Made by a program: the position numbers and the translations under genes. A DNA stretch of 64,000 nucleotides from Candidatus Poribacteria bacterium (GTDB taxonomy: Bacteria > Poribacteria > WGA-4E > WGA-3G): positions 1 through 64,000 of the forward strand of contig JAPPBX010000001.1 of NCBI GenBank assembly GCA_026702755.1, written 5' to 3'. Below the pieces are notes generated by a model, which searched no databases, was not told the origin of the DNA, and saw only the letters and a list, made by a program, of their open reading frames with translations. This document shows, in pieces, positions 8,585 through 59,135 of the stretch. Numbering within the stretch: position 1 is the first letter of the stretch; each line of letters opens with the position of its first letter.

Positions 8585-10234
8585 ATGCGAATAAATCAAA
8601 ATCTGAAGTCGTTTTTACCATCCCTTTTAATTTTTCTGCTAACCGCAGGCAGTGTCGTCTCGCAACCTCCTACCTTCGTGGATGTCACCGAAGAAGCAGG
8701 CATCCACTTCAAACACAACAGCGGCGCAACCGAGCACAAGCATATCATCGAAACAATGGGGTCAGGTGGGATCTTCTTTGATTACGACACCGACGGCGAT
8801 GTTGACCTCTATTTTGTTGACAGTGGTAACGTCCCCTCAGAGAAACAGCAAGCATCTGGTAACGTCCTCTACCGAAACGAAGGTGATGGGCGTTTCACGG
8901 ATGTTACTGAAATCTCAGGAACAGGGGATACAGGGTACGGGATGGCGGCATCTGCGGGGGATATCGACAATGACGGCCATCCCGACCTCTATGTCGCCAA
9001 CTTTAGGCAGGACAAACTCTACCGAAACAATGGAGACGGCACCTTTACCGACATCACCGAAGCTGCAGGTATTGATAACACCCTCTGGAGTATTGGTGCT
9101 GTCTATCTCGATTTCGATGTCGATGGGGACTTGGATATCTTCATCGTCAATTATCTTGTGTATGAGACCTCAATGCCAGTGACAACCTACAAAGGTATTG
9201 TCGGTTACGGGCATCCGCGCAGCTACGAAGGCACTCCCGATGTGCTTTACCGAAACAACGGTGATGGCACCTTCACCAATATCTCGGAAATGGCGGGCGT
9301 GACAAACCCCGTCGAGGGCAGGGGTATGGCAGCCGTCGCTTGGGACTACGATCAAGATGGATTGCCTGATATTTACGTCGCCAATGATACCAACAGAAAC
9401 TTTCTGTACCATAATAACGGTGATGGCACCTTCACGGATGAAAGTACTTTCATCGGCGTGGGATATGACGAGAGAGGTGTCGCCGAAGGTTCCATGGGAG
9501 TAGACAGTGCTGATTATGACGGCGATGGATGGTTCGATCTAATCGTTGCGAATTCGGAGAAGGCAACCCTCTATAAAAACGAGGAGGGACTTTTCTTTTT
9601 CGATGCAACAGCGGACAGCGGGTTGGAACAACCGACACTGCCGTTCATCGGTTTCAGTCCGCTCTTTCTGGATTACGATAACGACGGACACGTCGACATG
9701 TTCTGTGCGAATGGAAACCCACAAGATGTCGTTGAACTATTGGTGGACCATGACACCTACGCCCAACGCGACCAGATGTTTCAAAACAACGGCGACGGCA
9801 CCTACAGCGATATATCAGAAGCCGCTGGGGATTACTTCTCAAAGGAATTCGTTGGTAGAGCCGCTGCGACCGCCGACTACGACAACGACGGCGATATGGA
9901 TATCGTCATCATGAATTCCAATCAACGCGCGGTCCTGCTTCGGAACGACGGAGGAAATCGGAAAAACTGGTTGGGCATTAAACTGGTCGGCACACAGAAC
10001 AACCGAGACGGGATTGGAACTAAGGTCACACTCACGACAGAGGACATGACACAGATAAGAGAAGTAAAAAGCGGTTCAAGCTACGCATCGGGCAGTGATA
10101 CGCGCTTGTTGTTTGGCTTAGGCGAGAGTCAGCATGTTAAGAAGGTGTCCATCGTCTGGCAAAGCGGCACCTTACAAGAATTGGAAGACATATCCGCCAA
10201 CCAGATATTGACGATTGTAGAATCGGAAGAGTAG
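8585..10234 (+). CDS. secreted FG-GAP/VCBS propeller with C-terminal ASPIC/UnbV domain
   Basis: A 549-residue exported protein with signal peptide (FLPSLLIFLLTAGSVVS). After F-V-D-V-T-E-E-A-G it has repeated calcium-binding loops of the FG-GAP/VCBS type: DYDTDGDVDLYF, DIDNDGHPDLYV, DFDVDGDLDIFI, DYDQDGLPDIYV, DYDGDGWFDLIV, DYDNDGHVDMFC and DYDNDGDMDIVI. The C-terminus is an ASPIC/UnbV domain (NWLGIKLVGTQNNRDGIGT, then KSGSSYASGSD and VSIVWQSG). These are seven-bladed surface or periplasmic proteins of unknown exact role. A second member lies at 60406-62103. It follows the SUMF1-like gene by 19 nt, in the same operon. Confidence 0.93.
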   Translation: MRINQNLKSFLPSLLIFLLTAGSVVSQPPTFVDVTEEAGIHFKHNSGATEHKHIIETMGSGGIFFDYDTDGDVDLYFVDSGNVPSEKQQASGNVLYRNEGDGRFTDVTEISGTGDTGYGMAASAGDIDNDGHPDLYVANFRQDKLYRNNGDGTFTDITEAAGIDNTLWSIGAVYLDFDVDGDLDIFIVNYLVYETSMPVTTYKGIVGYGHPRSYEGTPDVLYRNNGDGTFTNISEMAGVTNPVEGRGMAAVAWDYDQDGLPDIYVANDTNRNFLYHNNGDGTFTDESTFIGVGYDERGVAEGSMGVDSADYDGDGWFDLIVANSEKATLYKNEEGLFFFDATADSGLEQPTLPFIGFSPLFLDYDNDGHVDMFCANGNPQDVVELLVDHDTYAQRDQMFQNNGDGTYSDISEAAGDYFSKEFVGRAAATADYDNDGDMDIVIMNSNQRAVLLRNDGGNRKNWLGIKLVGTQNNRDGIGTKVTLTTEDMTQIREVKSGSSYASGSDTRLLFGLGESQHVKKVSIVWQSGTLQELEDISANQILTIVESEE

Positions 10235-11518: not shown

Positions 11519-12520
11519 ATGAAAACAATACGGTTGTTAGTTTTTGTCATACTGAATCTGTTCGTGCTAACCTTAAGCATTTCTCCGCTTTTTGCAAAAG
11601 CACCGACAACGCCTAAAATCCTGTTTACTTCTACACGTGATGGTGGTCAGCGCGATGTTTACATCATGAACCCGGATGGCACTGAACAGGTGAACTTGAC
11701 ACAACATCCCGCAGAGGACCTCGAAGCCGTCTGGTCCCCAACAGGCGAGAAGATTCTTTTTACCTCTGATCGTGGCCGTGCGCGTGATCTGTACGTGATG
11801 AATCCAGATGGCTCTAATATCCGACGCGTCTTCAAGTTTAAGACAACGAAGTGGAGAACAGACCCGACGTGGTCCCCCGATGGCAAACAGTTCGCTTATG
11901 AGTCTATAGATTGGGGTCGTCTCAAGTTCGCTCTCGACATTGCGATCCTTGGGGAACAAGACTCGGAAACTCTTGTGGAAGGTAGTTTTCCGGCATGGTC
12001 ACCGGATGGAACGGAGATCGCCTGTTCTGTAGCGGAACGACTCACATTAATCAATGTCCGCACAGGAAAACAAAAACAACTCCTACCCAAAAATGTGGAG
12101 CCTTTCCAACGCTTCCCATCTTGGTCTGCTGCGGGCGACAAACTCGCCTTCGCTTGGAATAAACACCGGGTGCCGCCTCCCGATGCGGATAGGGCTGTGC
12201 ACGCGGAATGGAAGGACAAAATAACAATCTATATCATCAACCGCGACGGCACTGGACTCCAGCAGCTTATCGAGGAAGCCGGTCCCTATGCCCAATATCC
12301 AGCACTATCGCCGGATGGAAATGAAGTCCTCTATACACAAGAAATTAAGGGAGATTTCCAAATTTTCAAACTTGATTTGAACAGCGGGGTTCGGACGCAG
12401 TTGACGCATATCATCGGGTGGAATACCGGTGGGGATTGGTTTGATCCGGCATACGCATTGCCCGTAGAGCCGCAACCAGATTTGTTAACAACGACCTGGG
12501 CAAAAGTGAAAAAGCAATAG
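11519..12520 (+). CDS. secreted TolB-like PD40 beta-propeller with C-terminal W-A-x-V-K tail (copy 1)
   Basis: A 333-residue exported protein with a signal peptide ending SISPLFA. The body is a PD40/TolB-type propeller with repeated blade motifs such as PKILFTSTRDG, RDVYIMNPDGTEQVNLT, VWSPTGEKILFTSDR, PTWSPDGKQFAY and PALSPDGNEVLYT. No catalytic domain follows, so the role is probably binding or scaffolding. The last residues are P-V-E-P-Q-x-DLLTTTWAKVK, the tail shared across this window. It is followed by a close paralogue, so this is a tandem duplication. A good promoter lies at 11408-11436. Confidence 0.88.
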   Translation: MKTIRLLVFVILNLFVLTLSISPLFAKAPTTPKILFTSTRDGGQRDVYIMNPDGTEQVNLTQHPAEDLEAVWSPTGEKILFTSDRGRARDLYVMNPDGSNIRRVFKFKTTKWRTDPTWSPDGKQFAYESIDWGRLKFALDIAILGEQDSETLVEGSFPAWSPDGTEIACSVAERLTLINVRTGKQKQLLPKNVEPFQRFPSWSAAGDKLAFAWNKHRVPPPDADRAVHAEWKDKITIYIINRDGTGLQQLIEEAGPYAQYPALSPDGNEVLYTQEIKGDFQIFKLDLNSGVRTQLTHIIGWNTGGDWFDPAYALPVEPQPDLLTTTWAKVKKQ

Positions 12521-54014: not shown

Positions 54015-54890
54015 TTAGAAAAAGAACGGGTTCGACCAGGCTTTTTTACCGGTTTCGTCTGTCACTTCAACACGAACGTATTTCGCACCGTTCGGAATGC
54101 TATACGTCGCCTCAGTCAAGAGTTCACCGTCTGGCAGGAGGATTCGTCGACCGCGACTACACTCCGCTTTAAAAACAATCGATTGTGCTGGCGAACACTT
54201 AACCGTTAACTCGTTATCCTCTAACGCTAGATCTTCAATTTCGGGTCCGAGTGTAGAATAAAACGCGCCTGTTCGGAACGCTTTCATGATGCTCTCAATC
54301 GTCAACTCTTCCGCTTTCACCATGATCCACCCGTGAAAGCAGTCGTGTTCGGTTCCGTGTGCATCATCTGAAGCGATGCCGAGAACAGGTCCACCTCTAT
54401 CCAACAAGTCATCCCATGCCTGTTCCGAGAAACCTTTGCCGATGCCCATACACGTGTCGTTGTAGACCTCAATGGCGAAGTACCCGCGTAACGGTAGGTA
54501 ATCGGTAATCGTGTGTCCGGACCAATACGGATGACACAAAACGGCTTCACCGCCCTGCGCTTTAATCTCATCAAGCACTGCGTTCGGGTGCATCTTTGCG
54601 CAATTGATCGTCTCATGAATGTTAATCGCGACAAAATGATAGGTCGCACCGCCATAAGGGTTTGATGGATGAACTTCGCTCCCAGATATTGCCAAAAAGT
54701 CTGGTGTACTGTAAGCACTCACATCGTTTACCTTACGGTGATCTGTTAGGACTAAGAAATCGTAGTCCGCTTCACGGTAGGCTGCGAACCGGTCCGACAT
54801 GGAAAGCTGCCCATCGGATTCCGTACTATGGCTATGTGTATTCCCTCGATACCATTGCCCCGGCTGGCGGAAAGGATTTGCGTTGAACAT
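54015..54890 (-). CDS. PHP-domain metal-dependent phosphoesterase-like protein (copy 1)
   Basis: A 291-residue PHP protein. NTHSHSTESDGQ carries the first metal motif (H-x-H), LVLTDHRKVND the second, and LCHPYWSGH the third. GIASDDAHG is the last. PHP domains hydrolyse phosphoesters, for example in polymerase proofreading or nucleotide breakdown. The C-terminal 60 residues form a beta-domain (SRGRRILLPDG, YVRVEVTDETGKKAWSNPFFF). ATG at 54890 has AAGGAGCAACC. A nearly identical gene lies at 55235-56110. Confidence 0.9.
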   Translation of the reverse strand: MFNANPFRQPGQWYRGNTHSHSTESDGQLSMSDRFAAYREADYDFLVLTDHRKVNDVSAYSTPDFLAISGSEVHPSNPYGGATYHFVAINIHETINCAKMHPNAVLDEIKAQGGEAVLCHPYWSGHTITDYLPLRGYFAIEVYNDTCMGIGKGFSEQAWDDLLDRGGPVLGIASDDAHGTEHDCFHGWIMVKAEELTIESIMKAFRTGAFYSTLGPEIEDLALEDNELTVKCSPAQSIVFKAECSRGRRILLPDGELLTEATYSIPNGAKYVRVEVTDETGKKAWSNPFFF

Positions 54891-55015
54891 TGGTTGCTCC
54901 TTGTTCGGTGATGATGTGTTCACATCTTTACGGATGATGCATTACTCCACTGGATGGACTTCACACGTCCATATCTATTTTACCATATCCAAAATTCACT
55001 TGTCAATAATTGCTC

Positions 55016-55234: not shown

Positions 55235-56110
55235 TTAGAAAAAAAATGGGTTCGACCAAGCTTTTTTACCGGTTTCGTCGGTTATTTCAACCCGAACATA
55301 CTTGACACTTTCCGGAATGCTATAGGTTGCCTCCGTCAAGAGTTCACCGTCGGGTGGCAGAATTCGCTGACCTCGACTGCATTGTGCTTTAAAAACAATT
55401 GATTGTGCTGGCGAGCATTTGACTGTCAACGCTTTATCATCTAACGCCATATCCATAATTTCGGGTCCCATTGTAGAATAGAACGCGCCCGTCCTGAATG
55501 CTTCCATGATACTTTCAATCGTCAACTCCTGTGCCTTGACCATAATCCATCCGTGGAAGCAATCGTGATCGGTGCCGTGTGAATCATCAGAAGCGATGCC
55601 GAGAACGGGTCCGCCTCTATCCAGCAAATCGTCCCACGCTTGTTCTGAAAATCCTTTGCCGATCTCCATACAGCCATCATTGTAGACTTCAATCGCGAAA
55701 TAACCCCGCAGCGGTAGATAATCCGTAATTGTGTGTCCAGACCAGTAGGGATGGCATAAAACGGCTTCGCCACCTTGCGCCTTAATCTCATCAAGCACAG
55801 CGTTCGGGGGCATCTTTGCGCAATTGATTGTCTCATGGATATTAATCGCGACAAAATGATACGTCGCACCACCATAGGGGTTTTCAGGATGCACCTCGCT
55901 TCCTGATATCGCCAGAAAGTCCGACGTGCTGTAAGCACTCACATCGTTTACCTTACGGTGATCTGTTAGGACTAAAAAATCGTAGCCTGCTTCACAGTAG
56001 GCTGCGAATCGATCCGACATGGAAAGTTGACCGTCGGATTCTGTGCTATGGCTATGTGTATTTCCTCGGTACCACTGTCCGGGTTGGCGGAAGGGATTTG
56101 CGTTGAACAT
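55235..56110 (-). CDS. PHP-domain metal-dependent phosphoesterase-like protein (copy 2)
   Basis: A 291-residue protein nearly identical to the PHP gene at 54015-54890, with the same metal motifs (NTHSHSTESDGQ, LVLTDHRKVND, LCHPYWSGH, GIASDDSHG). Differences are mostly conservative and spread through the chain. Same length, same start context (GAGGAGTTATCG before the ATG at 56110). The promoter-proximal copy of a tandem duplication. Both copies keep all the motifs, so both may be active. Confidence 0.9.
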   Translation of the reverse strand: MFNANPFRQPGQWYRGNTHSHSTESDGQLSMSDRFAAYCEAGYDFLVLTDHRKVNDVSAYSTSDFLAISGSEVHPENPYGGATYHFVAINIHETINCAKMPPNAVLDEIKAQGGEAVLCHPYWSGHTITDYLPLRGYFAIEVYNDGCMEIGKGFSEQAWDDLLDRGGPVLGIASDDSHGTDHDCFHGWIMVKAQELTIESIMEAFRTGAFYSTMGPEIMDMALDDKALTVKCSPAQSIVFKAQCSRGQRILPPDGELLTEATYSIPESVKYVRVEITDETGKKAWSNPFFF

Positions 56111-56310
56111 CGATAACTCCTCATTCTGTGATGATATGTTCACGTCTTTAGGCGGTGATGTATGAATCTATTGGATGGATCTCGCATGTCCACATTTATT
56201 TTAGCGTGTCTATAGTCCATTGTCAATAATTGTCCGATTGGTAATCAGCCTATGCAATTTTCGATTTTCAATTATCAGCAGGTACGGATTGGTGAGGGGC
56301 AACCATAATT

Positions 56311-56556: not shown

Positions 56557-56585
56557 TTGACATTATGCGTATAATGTAGTATTAT
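56557..56585 (+). promoter_or_regulatory. promoter of the predicted small RNA
   Basis: TTGACA (56557-56562) and TATTAT (56580-56585) are separated by 17 nt. No coding sequence follows on the plus strand before the hairpin terminator at 56669. Confidence 0.65.
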
Positions 56586-56591
56586 ATAATT

Positions 56592-56669
56592 GCCAGTGGA
56601 CAAAATTCGGGTTCACCCGTGTGATTGGAAGGCCACGGCCCAGCACAATCCTATATCCCTGGCTTTTTT
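56592..56669 (+). ncRNA. predicted small RNA with three-way-junction fold and intrinsic terminator
   Basis: About 78 nt between a good promoter and a T-run. GCCAG (56592-56596) pairs with CTGGC (56659-56663), which is directly followed by six T. Inside, CGGG-TTCA-CCCG (56608-56619) forms a tetraloop hairpin, and GATTG (56623-56627) pairs with CAATC (56646-56650) around a purine/pyrimidine-rich loop (GGAAGGCCACGGCCCAGCA). No open frame is present. It overlaps the end of the DUF3800 gene on the other strand by 2 nt. It does not match SRP RNA or any riboswitch that I can recall. Confidence 0.5.
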
Positions 56670-57522
56670 ATTTTCTTTCCCTTAAGGTTTCTGCTGTGAG
56701 CGGCTTATTTTGTGTGTAATAGACACCATAATGTGTCTCGCGTGTGTCGTCCATATCGTGTACAAGTCCAAAAGCCTGCCATAGATATACCAAATATCGG
56801 TCTTCACCTCGCTCATAAAGCCTCTGTAACGCCCAGATGAAATAATCAACAGCCTGCAAACCGGCATGTTCTTTTGGAGTCGCTGCAGATACCTTCAAGG
56901 ATACATTGGTTAGTATACTACTGGGTAAATTGATCTGATTTTGTAGCAAATCCGGTGCAAATTCAATTGCTCGACGCAAAGAATGCGTGCGCCCAGATTT
57001 GCCGCGTTTTGAGAAGATAATATCGTATCTACTACGCTGGCGTAACCTTTCCTTGAACAACCGACCTGTTAGATAATCATAAAGTTCATTCGGATGATAG
57101 CGATAAGCAAGTTCCCGTTTGTTGCGTTGGCGCACATATTCAAGGACACTCAATTTATCAGCAACAACAGCGAAAAAACGTAATCCTTCGGTGTCACGTA
57201 AAATCTGAAAAACATCCCTGCGGACTTCTGGTAAATCATCTTTAGCGTGGAATGCGAGTGCTGTTTTACGCTCGTCTGGTTGCATAGATGGTACACGCTT
57301 GAAATAAGAATCGCTCATAAGTTGTGCCCGCAGCTCATCAAAACGAACCTTTAATGCCACTGGATCCGGTACATCCAACAAACCAAGTATGAAAAATCGG
57401 GAACATCCTTCTGTCCCAACCAATACCTTCCCAGTTCTGGAAAAGAGAGTGCTGTCACCGCCTTCATCTACAAAGTAATGGCGGATCGAAGGATGTATTT
57501 CTGGGATTTGTTTACTTTCCAT
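56668..57522 (-). CDS. DUF3800-domain protein
   Basis: A 284-residue protein of the DUF3800 family, which has an RNase-H-like fold. YFVDEGGDSTLF is the N-terminal block with acidic residues, FHAKDD follows, and LQAVDYFIWALQRLYER is the C-terminal block with the conserved aspartate. The acidic residues may bind metal for nuclease activity, but the function is not established. DUF3800 genes are often near mobile elements and defence loci; no such genes are seen here. Confidence 0.85.
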   Translation of the reverse strand: MESKQIPEIHPSIRHYFVDEGGDSTLFSRTGKVLVGTEGCSRFFILGLLDVPDPVALKVRFDELRAQLMSDSYFKRVPSMQPDERKTALAFHAKDDLPEVRRDVFQILRDTEGLRFFAVVADKLSVLEYVRQRNKRELAYRYHPNELYDYLTGRLFKERLRQRSRYDIIFSKRGKSGRTHSLRRAIEFAPDLLQNQINLPSSILTNVSLKVSAATPKEHAGLQAVDYFIWALQRLYERGEDRYLVYLWQAFGLVHDMDDTRETHYGVYYTQNKPLTAETLRERK

Positions 57523-57947: not shown

Positions 57948-59135
57948 ATGAAATCCTACAGGCAAATCGTTGAGGAAGCCAAAACAGAAATCCCAGAGGT
58001 AACCATCGACGACGTAAAAGCCGAACAGGAAAAAGACAGCGATTTCGTGTTACTGGATGTGCGTGATGAAGACGAATATCGCGCCGGTTATATCCCTAAT
58101 GCGGTTCATGTCACACGTGGCATGCTGGAATTTTCGGTTGAAAACTATATTCCCGATCGCGACCAAAAGGTTGTCATTTACTGTGCGGCGGGACTCCGTT
58201 CTCTCCTCGCTGCCAAGTCGCTTCGTGAGATGGGTTACACGGACACCGTCTCCCTTGCTGGCGGATATCGCGATTGGTCAGCAGCGGGTTACCCCACTGC
58301 TCAAGATAAACCGATGTCGCACGAGCAGCTCGATCGTTACAGCCGACACTTTATGCTCACCGAAGTCGGAGAACAGGGACAAGCGAAACTATTGGATGCC
58401 AAGGTGCTACTCGTCGGAGCAGGTGGTTTAGGTTCACCTGCAGGGGTATATCTCGGTGCCGCTGGTGTCGGACACATGGGCATTATCGATTCCGATGTCG
58501 TAGAGTTAAGCAATCTACAGCGTCAGATACTTCACCGGACAGAAGCGGTCGGCACACCGAAGGTACAATCCGCGACGACAACAATTAAGTCGTTGAACCC
58601 GGATATCGACATCACGCCGTATAACCTTCGGTTAACTGCTGATAACGTTGAAGAAATCTTTTCGGAATACGATCTGATTGTCGATGGATGCGATAATTTC
58701 GCCACCCGTTTTCTCGTCAACGATGCCGCTGTGTTGATGAATAAACCGATTGTTCACGGCAGTATTTTCCAATTTGAGGGACAGGTATCACTCTTTAAAC
58801 CGCACGAGGGACCTTGCTACCGATGCATGTATCCAACACCGCCGCCACCGGGTATGGTGCCCAGCTGAAGTGAAGCCGGTGTCCTGGGCGTGCTCCCAGG
58901 CGTGATTGGTGTCATGATGGCAACCGAAGCAATTAAATACATTATCGGTATCGGCGAACCCCTTATCGGTAGGCTCATCCTCTATGACGCACTCAGCATG
59001 ACCTATCGCGAGATGAAAATTAACCGAGATGAGAATTGCCCACTTTGTGGCGACAACCCAACCGTTACCAAACTGATTGATGATTACGAAGCAGCGGCGG
59101 AAAATCCAGAAACTTTTGCCCCCGCCGCTGATTAA
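57948..59135 (+). CDS. rhodanese-MoeB/ThiF-like selenoprotein candidate (in-frame TGA = Sec307)
   Basis: A 395-residue protein if the TGA at 58866-58868 is read as selenocysteine. The N-terminal rhodanese domain has VLLDVRDEDEYRAGYIPN and VIYCAAGLRS (C79). Then the E1-like MoeB/ThiF domain has LLVGAGGLGSPAGVYLGAAG (ATP site), SDVVELSNLQRQILH and VDGCDNF. Two zinc C-x2-C pairs (C290, C293; C364, C367) are intact. After PPPPGMVPS the codon is TGA, followed in frame by SEAGVLGVLPGVIG, where relatives have P-S-C-A-E-A-G-V-L. Sequence on both sides is fully conserved, so neither decay nor frameshift fits. MoeB/ThiF adenylates the C-terminus of MoaD/ThiS-type carriers for sulfur transfer. MOCS3 carries its rhodanese domain at the other end. 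Confidence 0.85.
58866..58900 (+). promoter_or_regulatory. SECIS-like hairpin for selenocysteine insertion
   Basis: TGA at 58866-58868, then CCTGGG (58883-58888) pairs perfectly with CCCAGG (58895-58900) around the loop CGTGCT. The loop begins 20 nt after the TGA and has G as its second base. This fits the bacterial SECIS rule of an apical loop 16-37 nt downstream with an early G. The hairpin also encodes the conserved V-L-G-V-L-P-G stretch. Confidence 0.8.

What the first reader, a model, noticed from the sequence alone, without database searches (positions are those of the whole stretch)
56557..56669. Standalone small RNA with promoter, three-way junction and terminator
Seen: TTGACA-17-TATTAT, then about 78 nt with GCCAG/CTGGC closing stem, a CGGG-TTCA-CCCG hairpin, a GATTG/CAATC stem and a terminal T6 run. 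It is oriented against the DUF3800 gene and overlaps its stop by 2 nt, so no gene follows for it to control in cis. The closing stem doubles as the terminator stem. It lacks the SRP GGAAGCAG tetraloop region and other known signatures.
Basis: partly seen in the sequence, partly recalled or inferred. Interest (0 to 1): 0.62.

Follow-up and report, generated by a model that had tools for sequence, protein, structure and literature searches.

The report
Small RNA partner of DUF3800 nuclease
A 78-nucleotide RNA with its own promoter and terminator faces a DUF3800 (RNase H-like) gene in a sponge-symbiont bacterium; it belongs to a new, widespread RNA class tied to that gene family, and is most likely an RNA antidote that some phages also carry.

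Summary
At window 56557-56669 (+) there is a TTGACA-17-TATTAT promoter, a 78-nt RNA with a three-way junction, and a closing stem that doubles as the terminator. It is a real conserved structured RNA. A covariance model finds it in 35 of 85 genomes of the phylum (Candidatus Poribacteria), and homologues occur in Latescibacterota, Chloroflexota, Cyanobacteria, other phyla and phage contigs. On 30 diverse sequences, 10 of 22 pairs show changes on both sides (0 of 500 shuffles reach this). It matches no Rfam family.

It is not simply standalone. In Poribacteria, all 17 DUF3800 genes of one clade have it convergent at their 3' end, and none of 29 other DUF3800 genes does. In Cyanobacteria and Chloroflexota, 18 of 20 clade members have it, one more by eye. 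The Rfam family DUF3800-IX shares this architecture, so this is a new class of DUF3800-associated RNA.

The RNA often persists, with promoter and pairing intact, where the protein is lost or broken. Two phage genomes carry it without the protein, one of them in a tRNA cluster. This asymmetry suggests an RNA antitoxin against a DUF3800 nuclease, with phage copies as decoys. Toxicity, binding and expression are untested.

The parts
56557..56585 (+). sigma-70-type promoter: TTGACA, 17 nt, TATTAT
   Evidence: Best promoter score of 9/12 or more in 14/16 Poribacteria homologues beside intact DUF3800, 21/25 others, 11/16 in other phyla, versus 6-11% of shuffles
56591..56669 (+). DUF3800-associated small RNA, about 78 nt (start site inferred from the -10 box)
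   Evidence: covariance model R1 match 56588-56666, 88.7 bits; homologues; covariation
56592..56600 (+). P1 5' strand GCCAG-U-GGA (closing stem)
   Evidence: sequence; P1 cells paired 94.5% with 4 pairs changed on both sides
56608..56619 (+). P2 hairpin CGGG-UUCA-CCCG (other members UGGC/GCCA, CGGC/GCCG)
56623..56650 (+). P3 GAUUG/CAAUC (56623-56627 with 56646-56650) enclosing P4 GGC-CACG-GCC (56631-56640)
   Evidence: G-C to A-U double change in P3 of L043; many double changes in P4
56656..56669 (+). P1 3' strand UCCCUGGC plus U6: terminator sharing the closing stem
   Evidence: T-rich run kept in most homologues
56668..57522 (-). convergent DUF3800 gene (284 aa), predicted RNase H-fold nuclease; stop codon overlaps the RNA's T-run by 2 nt
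   Evidence: PF12686 E 5.9e-10; PADLOC DUF3800_VII E 2.1e-12; AF2 model pLDDT 79.9, pTM 0.83; best solved match RNase HII 1eke, E 1.9e-4, TM 0.37-0.45

Best explanation
The locus encodes a two-part module: a DUF3800 protein (predicted RNase H-fold nuclease) and a 78-nt structured RNA transcribed from its own promoter towards the gene's 3' end. SHOWN by sequence: the RNA is conserved, folded and obligately linked to this DUF3800 clade; it is often kept where the protein is broken or absent; it occurs alone in phage genomes. INFERRED: the RNA binds the DUF3800 protein directly and holds it inactive, as RNA antitoxins do in type III toxin-antitoxin and AbiF systems. Loss or competition of the RNA, for example during phage attack, would free a nuclease that stops growth or degrades invader nucleic acid. 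RNA copies carried by phages, and by bacteria that have lost the protein, would act as antidotes or decoys.
For: (1) Linkage: 17/17 clade members in the phylum have the RNA at the 3' end, 0/29 other DUF3800 genes do; the other DUF3800 loci held give no hit to the clade HMM. In Cyanobacteria and Chloroflexota, 18 of 20 clade hits have an R1 match there at E 0.022 or better, one more by eye, the last an 84-aa fragment. (2) Structure: 94.6% of cells paired, 10 pairs with changes on both sides versus 4.7 in shuffles (0/500), slid controls 3-6; many G-U pairs, which would be A-C mismatches on the other strand. (3) Asymmetry: DUF3800 of this clade is not seen without the RNA, but the RNA is seen beside DUF3800 remnants or with no DUF3800 in about 25 loci, with promoters (21/25) and pairing (98.6% versus 99.6%) intact. 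(4) Phages: solitary RNA in a contig with terminase and tRNAs, and in one with terminase, portal and capsid genes, with no DUF3800 in those records. (5) Nuclease fold with invariant acidic residues D19, E20, D96, D226, D256, D259. (6) Precedents: AbiF/RCd22 RNA antitoxin (PMC12373285); phage pseudo-ToxI RNA decoy (PMC5449768). (7) Setting: type III restriction-modification islands.
Against: No expression, binding or toxicity data. A cofactor RNA would also be obligately linked. Solitary copies beside type III Mod genes are so regular (RNA start to Mod stop 76-80 nt) that they may have a job of their own. The phage records are fragments, so an unseen DUF3800 partner is possible. The second phage copy (L114) lacks the usual P2 hairpin.
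Confidence: 0.6

Rival explanations
1. The RNA is an essential activating cofactor or sensor of the DUF3800 effector (an RNP in which the RNA is needed for activity, or is sensed or cut), not an inhibitor.
For: Obligate linkage of DUF3800 to the RNA and conserved unpaired nucleotides (ACRAAA, loop UYCAU, GUGUG, CUAUA) suggest a protein-binding RNA. DUF3800 proteins accompany RNA-guided Cas12a2 systems and an RNase H fold is predicted for them (PMC10910872).
Against: A cofactor has no reason to outlive its protein, yet many solitary copies keep promoter and structure, and phages carry the RNA alone. No variable guide segment exists, so it is not a guide RNA.
Confidence: 0.2
2. The RNA is a trans-acting or antisense regulator: it pairs with mRNAs (its convergent neighbour, or Mod) or regulates the type III restriction-modification genes.
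For: It is convergent with and touches the 3' end of the neighbour gene; 13 Poribacteria loci have it behind a type III Mod gene without DUF3800.
Against: Overlap with the gene is only a few nt (2 in the window, up to about 20), the same RNA faces unrelated genes, and the conserved parts are structural, with compensatory changes throughout. Outside Poribacteria it is beside DUF3800, not Mod.
Confidence: 0.1
3. It is only a convergent terminator or an intergenic mobile repeat (MITE-like) parked at gene ends.
For: It sits at gene ends and is patchily distributed (35/85 genomes).
Against: One copy in the own genome, a promoter conserved across phyla, covariation in every helix, and strict linkage to one protein clade.
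Confidence: 0.04

Closest known systems
DUF3800-IX RNA (Rfam RF02968), one of the DUF3800 RNA classes of Weinberg et al. 2017 (doi 10.1093/nar/gkx699, cited in PMC10910872)
   Same: Same position (convergent, RNA start 55-82 nt from the DUF3800 stop in L197, L198, L199, L203), same plan: closing stem that is also the terminator, CGAA-type 5' joining strand, two hairpins, 3' joining CUA(G); solitary copies also occur (L195, L196, L200, L202).
   Different: The Rfam model does not match our RNA even at E 10; hairpin sequences differ; its DUF3800 proteins are a different clade (no hit to our clade HMM).
AbiF / RCd22 RNA antitoxin system (PMC12373285)
   Same: Abortive-infection protein with a small structured RNA that has its own promoter and terminator and neutralises the protein by direct binding, in cis or trans.
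   Different: Unrelated protein family (Abi_2); the RNA lies upstream in the same orientation; different RNA motif.
Type III toxin-antitoxin systems (ToxIN) and phage pseudo-ToxI (PMC5449768)
   Same: RNA antidote to a nuclease toxin; phage RNA mimic as escape.
   Different: Type III antitoxin RNAs are tandem repeats upstream of the toxin gene and cut by it (general knowledge); here a single unit, convergent, with its own promoter.
PADLOC DUF3800_VII model (to my knowledge the effector of type VII retrons)
   Same: The window protein matches it (E 2.1e-12): a DUF3800 effector whose partner includes a non-coding RNA.
   Different: No reverse transcriptase was noticed beside the RNA in the window, and the RNA has no retron-like inverted-repeat layout (not tested further).

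Membership tests
DUF3800-associated RNA (as a kind) | structured RNA consistently next to a DUF3800 gene | tested here: met
   17/17 clade genes in the phylum, 18/20 in two other phyla
DUF3800-associated RNA (as a kind) | conserved secondary structure supported by covariation | tested here: met
DUF3800-IX (RF02968) and every other Rfam 15 family | score at or above the gathering threshold | tested here: not met
   no match in the window at gathering or E 10, nor in 20 homologous or near-homologous loci
Type III toxin-antitoxin | RNA antitoxin binds and inhibits a nuclease toxin | not testable with these tools
   needs binding and toxicity assays
Type III toxin-antitoxin | tandem-repeat antitoxin RNA upstream of a ToxN/AbiQ-family toxin | tested here: not met
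   single unit, convergent, DUF3800 protein
AbiF RNA system | Abi_2 protein partner with AbiF RNA motif | tested here: not met
   partner is DUF3800; no Rfam AbiF match. An Abi_2 gene lies near one solitary copy only (L174)
RNA-guided system (crRNA, omega RNA) | variable guide segment | tested here: not met
   all segments conserved across phyla
Retron type VII | reverse transcriptase with msr-msd RNA beside the DUF3800 effector | not tested
   no dedicated search for reverse transcriptases was run

The most novel reading that the evidence does not exclude
DUF3800 proteins with their RNAs form a large, overlooked class of RNA-antidote defence modules. Phages, at least one carrying the RNA in its tRNA cluster, have captured the RNA alone as a counter-defence decoy, and bacteria keep orphan copies as immunity RNAs.
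Probability: 0.4. Interest if true: 0.78.

Novelty: new member of a known kind. Interest (0 to 1): 0.58.

Why it matters
DUF3800 RNAs have been listed in Rfam (source paper of 2017), and no functional study of them turned up in the library I could search. The strict one-way linkage found here (protein not seen without RNA, RNA often without protein) plus phage-borne copies turns a catalogue entry into a directly testable toxin-antidote and counter-defence hypothesis, with cyanobacterial members (Tolypothrix, Anabaena, a Synechococcus elongatus plasmid, an Annamia plasmid) to test it in.

Tried and rejected
Rfam scan of the whole window and a permissive scan of the locus: nothing. Single-sequence folding energy as evidence: not significant. 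Minus-strand element (3' UTR of DUF3800): it folds slightly better on its own, but the conserved promoter, the T-run and the many G-U pairs put the RNA on the + strand. RNA as antisense to one gene: rejected because it faces DUF3800, Mod or other genes. Repeat or MITE: one copy in the own genome. Phage and plasmid named collections: no phage match; plasmids gave a Synechococcus elongatus copy and an Annamia DUF3800-RNA pair. Pattern hit L113 was false (no R1 match). PDB by sequence: only weak, implausible matches. Weinberg 2017 could not be read here. A c5-type protein of 512 aa and the c19/c20 pair in the same islands gave no useful family match.

Full report
WHAT IS THERE. The window belongs to a Candidatus Poribacteria genome (G000): named records of the collection that give the same RNA at matching contig lengths are mostly Poribacteria MAGs, and the window lies in G000:C1. 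At 56557-56585 (+) there is TTGACA-17-TATTAT, followed by GCCAG-U-GGACAAAAUU-CGGGUUCACCCG-UGU-GAUUG-GAAGGCCACGGCCCAGCA-CAAUC-CUAUA-UCCCUGGC-UUUUUU, which ends at 56669, 2 nt inside the stop of the convergent DUF3800 ORF 56668-57522. The fold of this sequence alone is ordinary (z -1.43) and Rfam has no match, so everything rests on comparison.

CONSERVATION AND STRAND. BLASTN found clear homologues in relatives. A covariance model R1 built from 28 of them finds 41 copies in 35 of 85 genomes of the phylum and one in the own genome. A DNA pattern scan of 84,980 species genomes added Latescibacterota, Caldilineaceae/Caldilineales, Anaerolineales, a deltaproteobacterium, Phycisphaerales, Fermentibacteria, Tolypothrix and Anabaena. 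On 30 diverse sequences (A3, aligned on sequence alone) the 22-pair structure keeps 94.6% of cells paired; 10 pairs have changes on both sides (shuffles 4.7, 0/500; slid controls 3-6), covariation score 0.242 versus 0.147. All four helices have such pairs: P1 (GC/AU/UA at its base), P2 (CG/UA; also G-C or C-G next to the loop, which the aligner splits), P3 (GC/AU) and P4 (GC, GU, AU, CG). Many variants are G-U, which would be mismatches on the other strand. The promoter is also conserved: 9 or more of 12 matches in 14/16 Poribacteria copies beside an intact DUF3800, 21/25 others and 11/16 in other phyla, against 6-11% in shuffled upstream DNA. So the + strand is the transcribed one. Transcription itself is inferred.

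THE PARTNER. The DUF3800 protein of the window defines a clade (alignment A2, 21 sequences). In the phylum, 17 of the 46 DUF3800 hits belong to it and all 17 have the RNA convergent at their 3' end; none of the other 29 does (searches compared), and all the non-clade DUF3800 loci held from this phylum give no hit to the clade HMM. In 244 cyanobacterial and 251 Chloroflexota genomes, 20 clade members were found; 18 have an R1 match at the same place (E 0.022 or better, filters off), one more is visible by eye (L225), and the last is an 84-aa fragment. These diverged RNAs rewrite P1 and P3 completely but keep the P2 hairpin (UCGGCUUCAUGCCGUGUG) and the 3' joining CCUA. A virus-classed contig, L226, also carries both parts. 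The protein is predicted as an RNase H fold (AF2 pLDDT 79.9, pTM 0.83; RNase HII 1eke first, E 1.9e-4, prob 1.00, TM 0.37-0.45: moderate), with invariant D19, E20, D96, D226, D256 and D259, in line with the RNase H fold reported for DUF3800 (PMC10910872).

ASYMMETRY. Beside some RNAs the DUF3800 gene is a remnant (G066a, G061a, G058a, G058b, G058c, G048, G053, a Caldilineales genome, a Phycisphaerales genome with an internal stop). In 13 Poribacteria loci (G055, G022, G012, G045, G001, G025a, G024, G035, G029b, G098, G010, G026, G005; G025a is degenerate and lies farther off, G001 is cut by the contig end) no DUF3800 is seen and the RNA sits behind a type III Mod gene, often with Res, DUF4411 and XRE-ImmA genes on the other side. 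The copies without an intact DUF3800 keep pairing (98.6% versus 99.6%) and promoters; G022 even shows a compensatory G-C to A-U change. Protein decays, RNA stays: this is the signature of an antidote rather than of a cofactor.

PHAGES. Four IMG/VR records first matched the pattern; L113 is false. L112/L115 (records of 55 and 112 kb, same phage type) carry the RNA downstream of tRNA-Pro, with no promoter or terminator of its own; the 112-kb record encodes a terminase. L114 carries a weaker copy (34 bits) with P1 and P4 rewritten but complementary and P2 altered, in a contig with terminase, portal and capsid genes. L166/L173 (short, viral status unproven) carry a copy 70/77 identical to a cyanobacterial one, with similar -10 region and T-run, just upstream of a DNA methyltransferase gene. 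None of these records has a DUF3800 gene. This is expected of decoys, by analogy with pseudo-ToxI.

WHAT IT IS LIKE. A different DUF3800 clade in Chloroflexota has the Rfam RNA DUF3800-IX in the same place and with the same plan, and DUF3800-IX also has solitary copies. So this is a new class of a known kind, outside every Rfam family. It works most like AbiF/RCd22, but membership of type III toxin-antitoxin, AbiF or retron families is not claimed.

LIMITS. No RNA-seq, binding or toxicity data; viral records are fragments; the pattern scans see only copies keeping the core; R1 includes the window in its training set; related Poribacteria copies are not independent, though the other phyla are.

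Noticed in passing
L112:601-704 and L115: Just upstream of the phage RNA copy is a tRNA- or tmRNA-like sequence (acceptor-like GGGCCTG...CAGGTCCA, T-arm GCGGGTTCAATTCCCGC) that ARAGORN and Rfam do not call; the RNA begins right after it.
   Followed up: partly
L046 8453-9991; L048 6430-9994; also L036, L045: Families in the type III RM islands with no useful family match: c5 (about 512 aa), c19 (984 aa) and c20 (212 aa). c19/c20 travel as a pair beside Res or Mod genes.
   Followed up: partly
L174 2792-4066 (Synechococcus elongatus UTEX 3055 plasmid): A solitary RNA copy (53 bits) lies between an Abi_2 gene and an integrase gene, with no DUF3800 of this clade in the plasmid.
   Followed up: partly
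window 54015-54923 and 55235-56143 (-): Tandem near-duplicate 302-aa genes (NTHSHSTESDGQ motif, PHP-like by eye); the second has no Pfam match, the first was not scanned.
   Followed up: no
G000:C69:44634-45185: A second DUF3800 gene of another clade in the same genome, with no matching RNA beside it.
   Followed up: partly
window 57948-58868 and relatives L033, L036, L044, L045: The site beside the rhodanese/MoeB-like gene is a recurrent insertion place: DUF3800-RNA, Mod-RNA, or RNA with c19/c20 in different Poribacteria.
   Followed up: partly
L175 2770-2850 (Annamia plasmid): A second, DUF3800-less copy of the diverged RNA (by eye) lies upstream of the DUF3800-RNA pair.
   Followed up: no
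L038 (G066), RNA copies at 9908-9985 and 12115-12192: Four type III Mod genes in a row interleaved with two RNA copies and a DUF3800 C-terminal remnant.
   Followed up: partly
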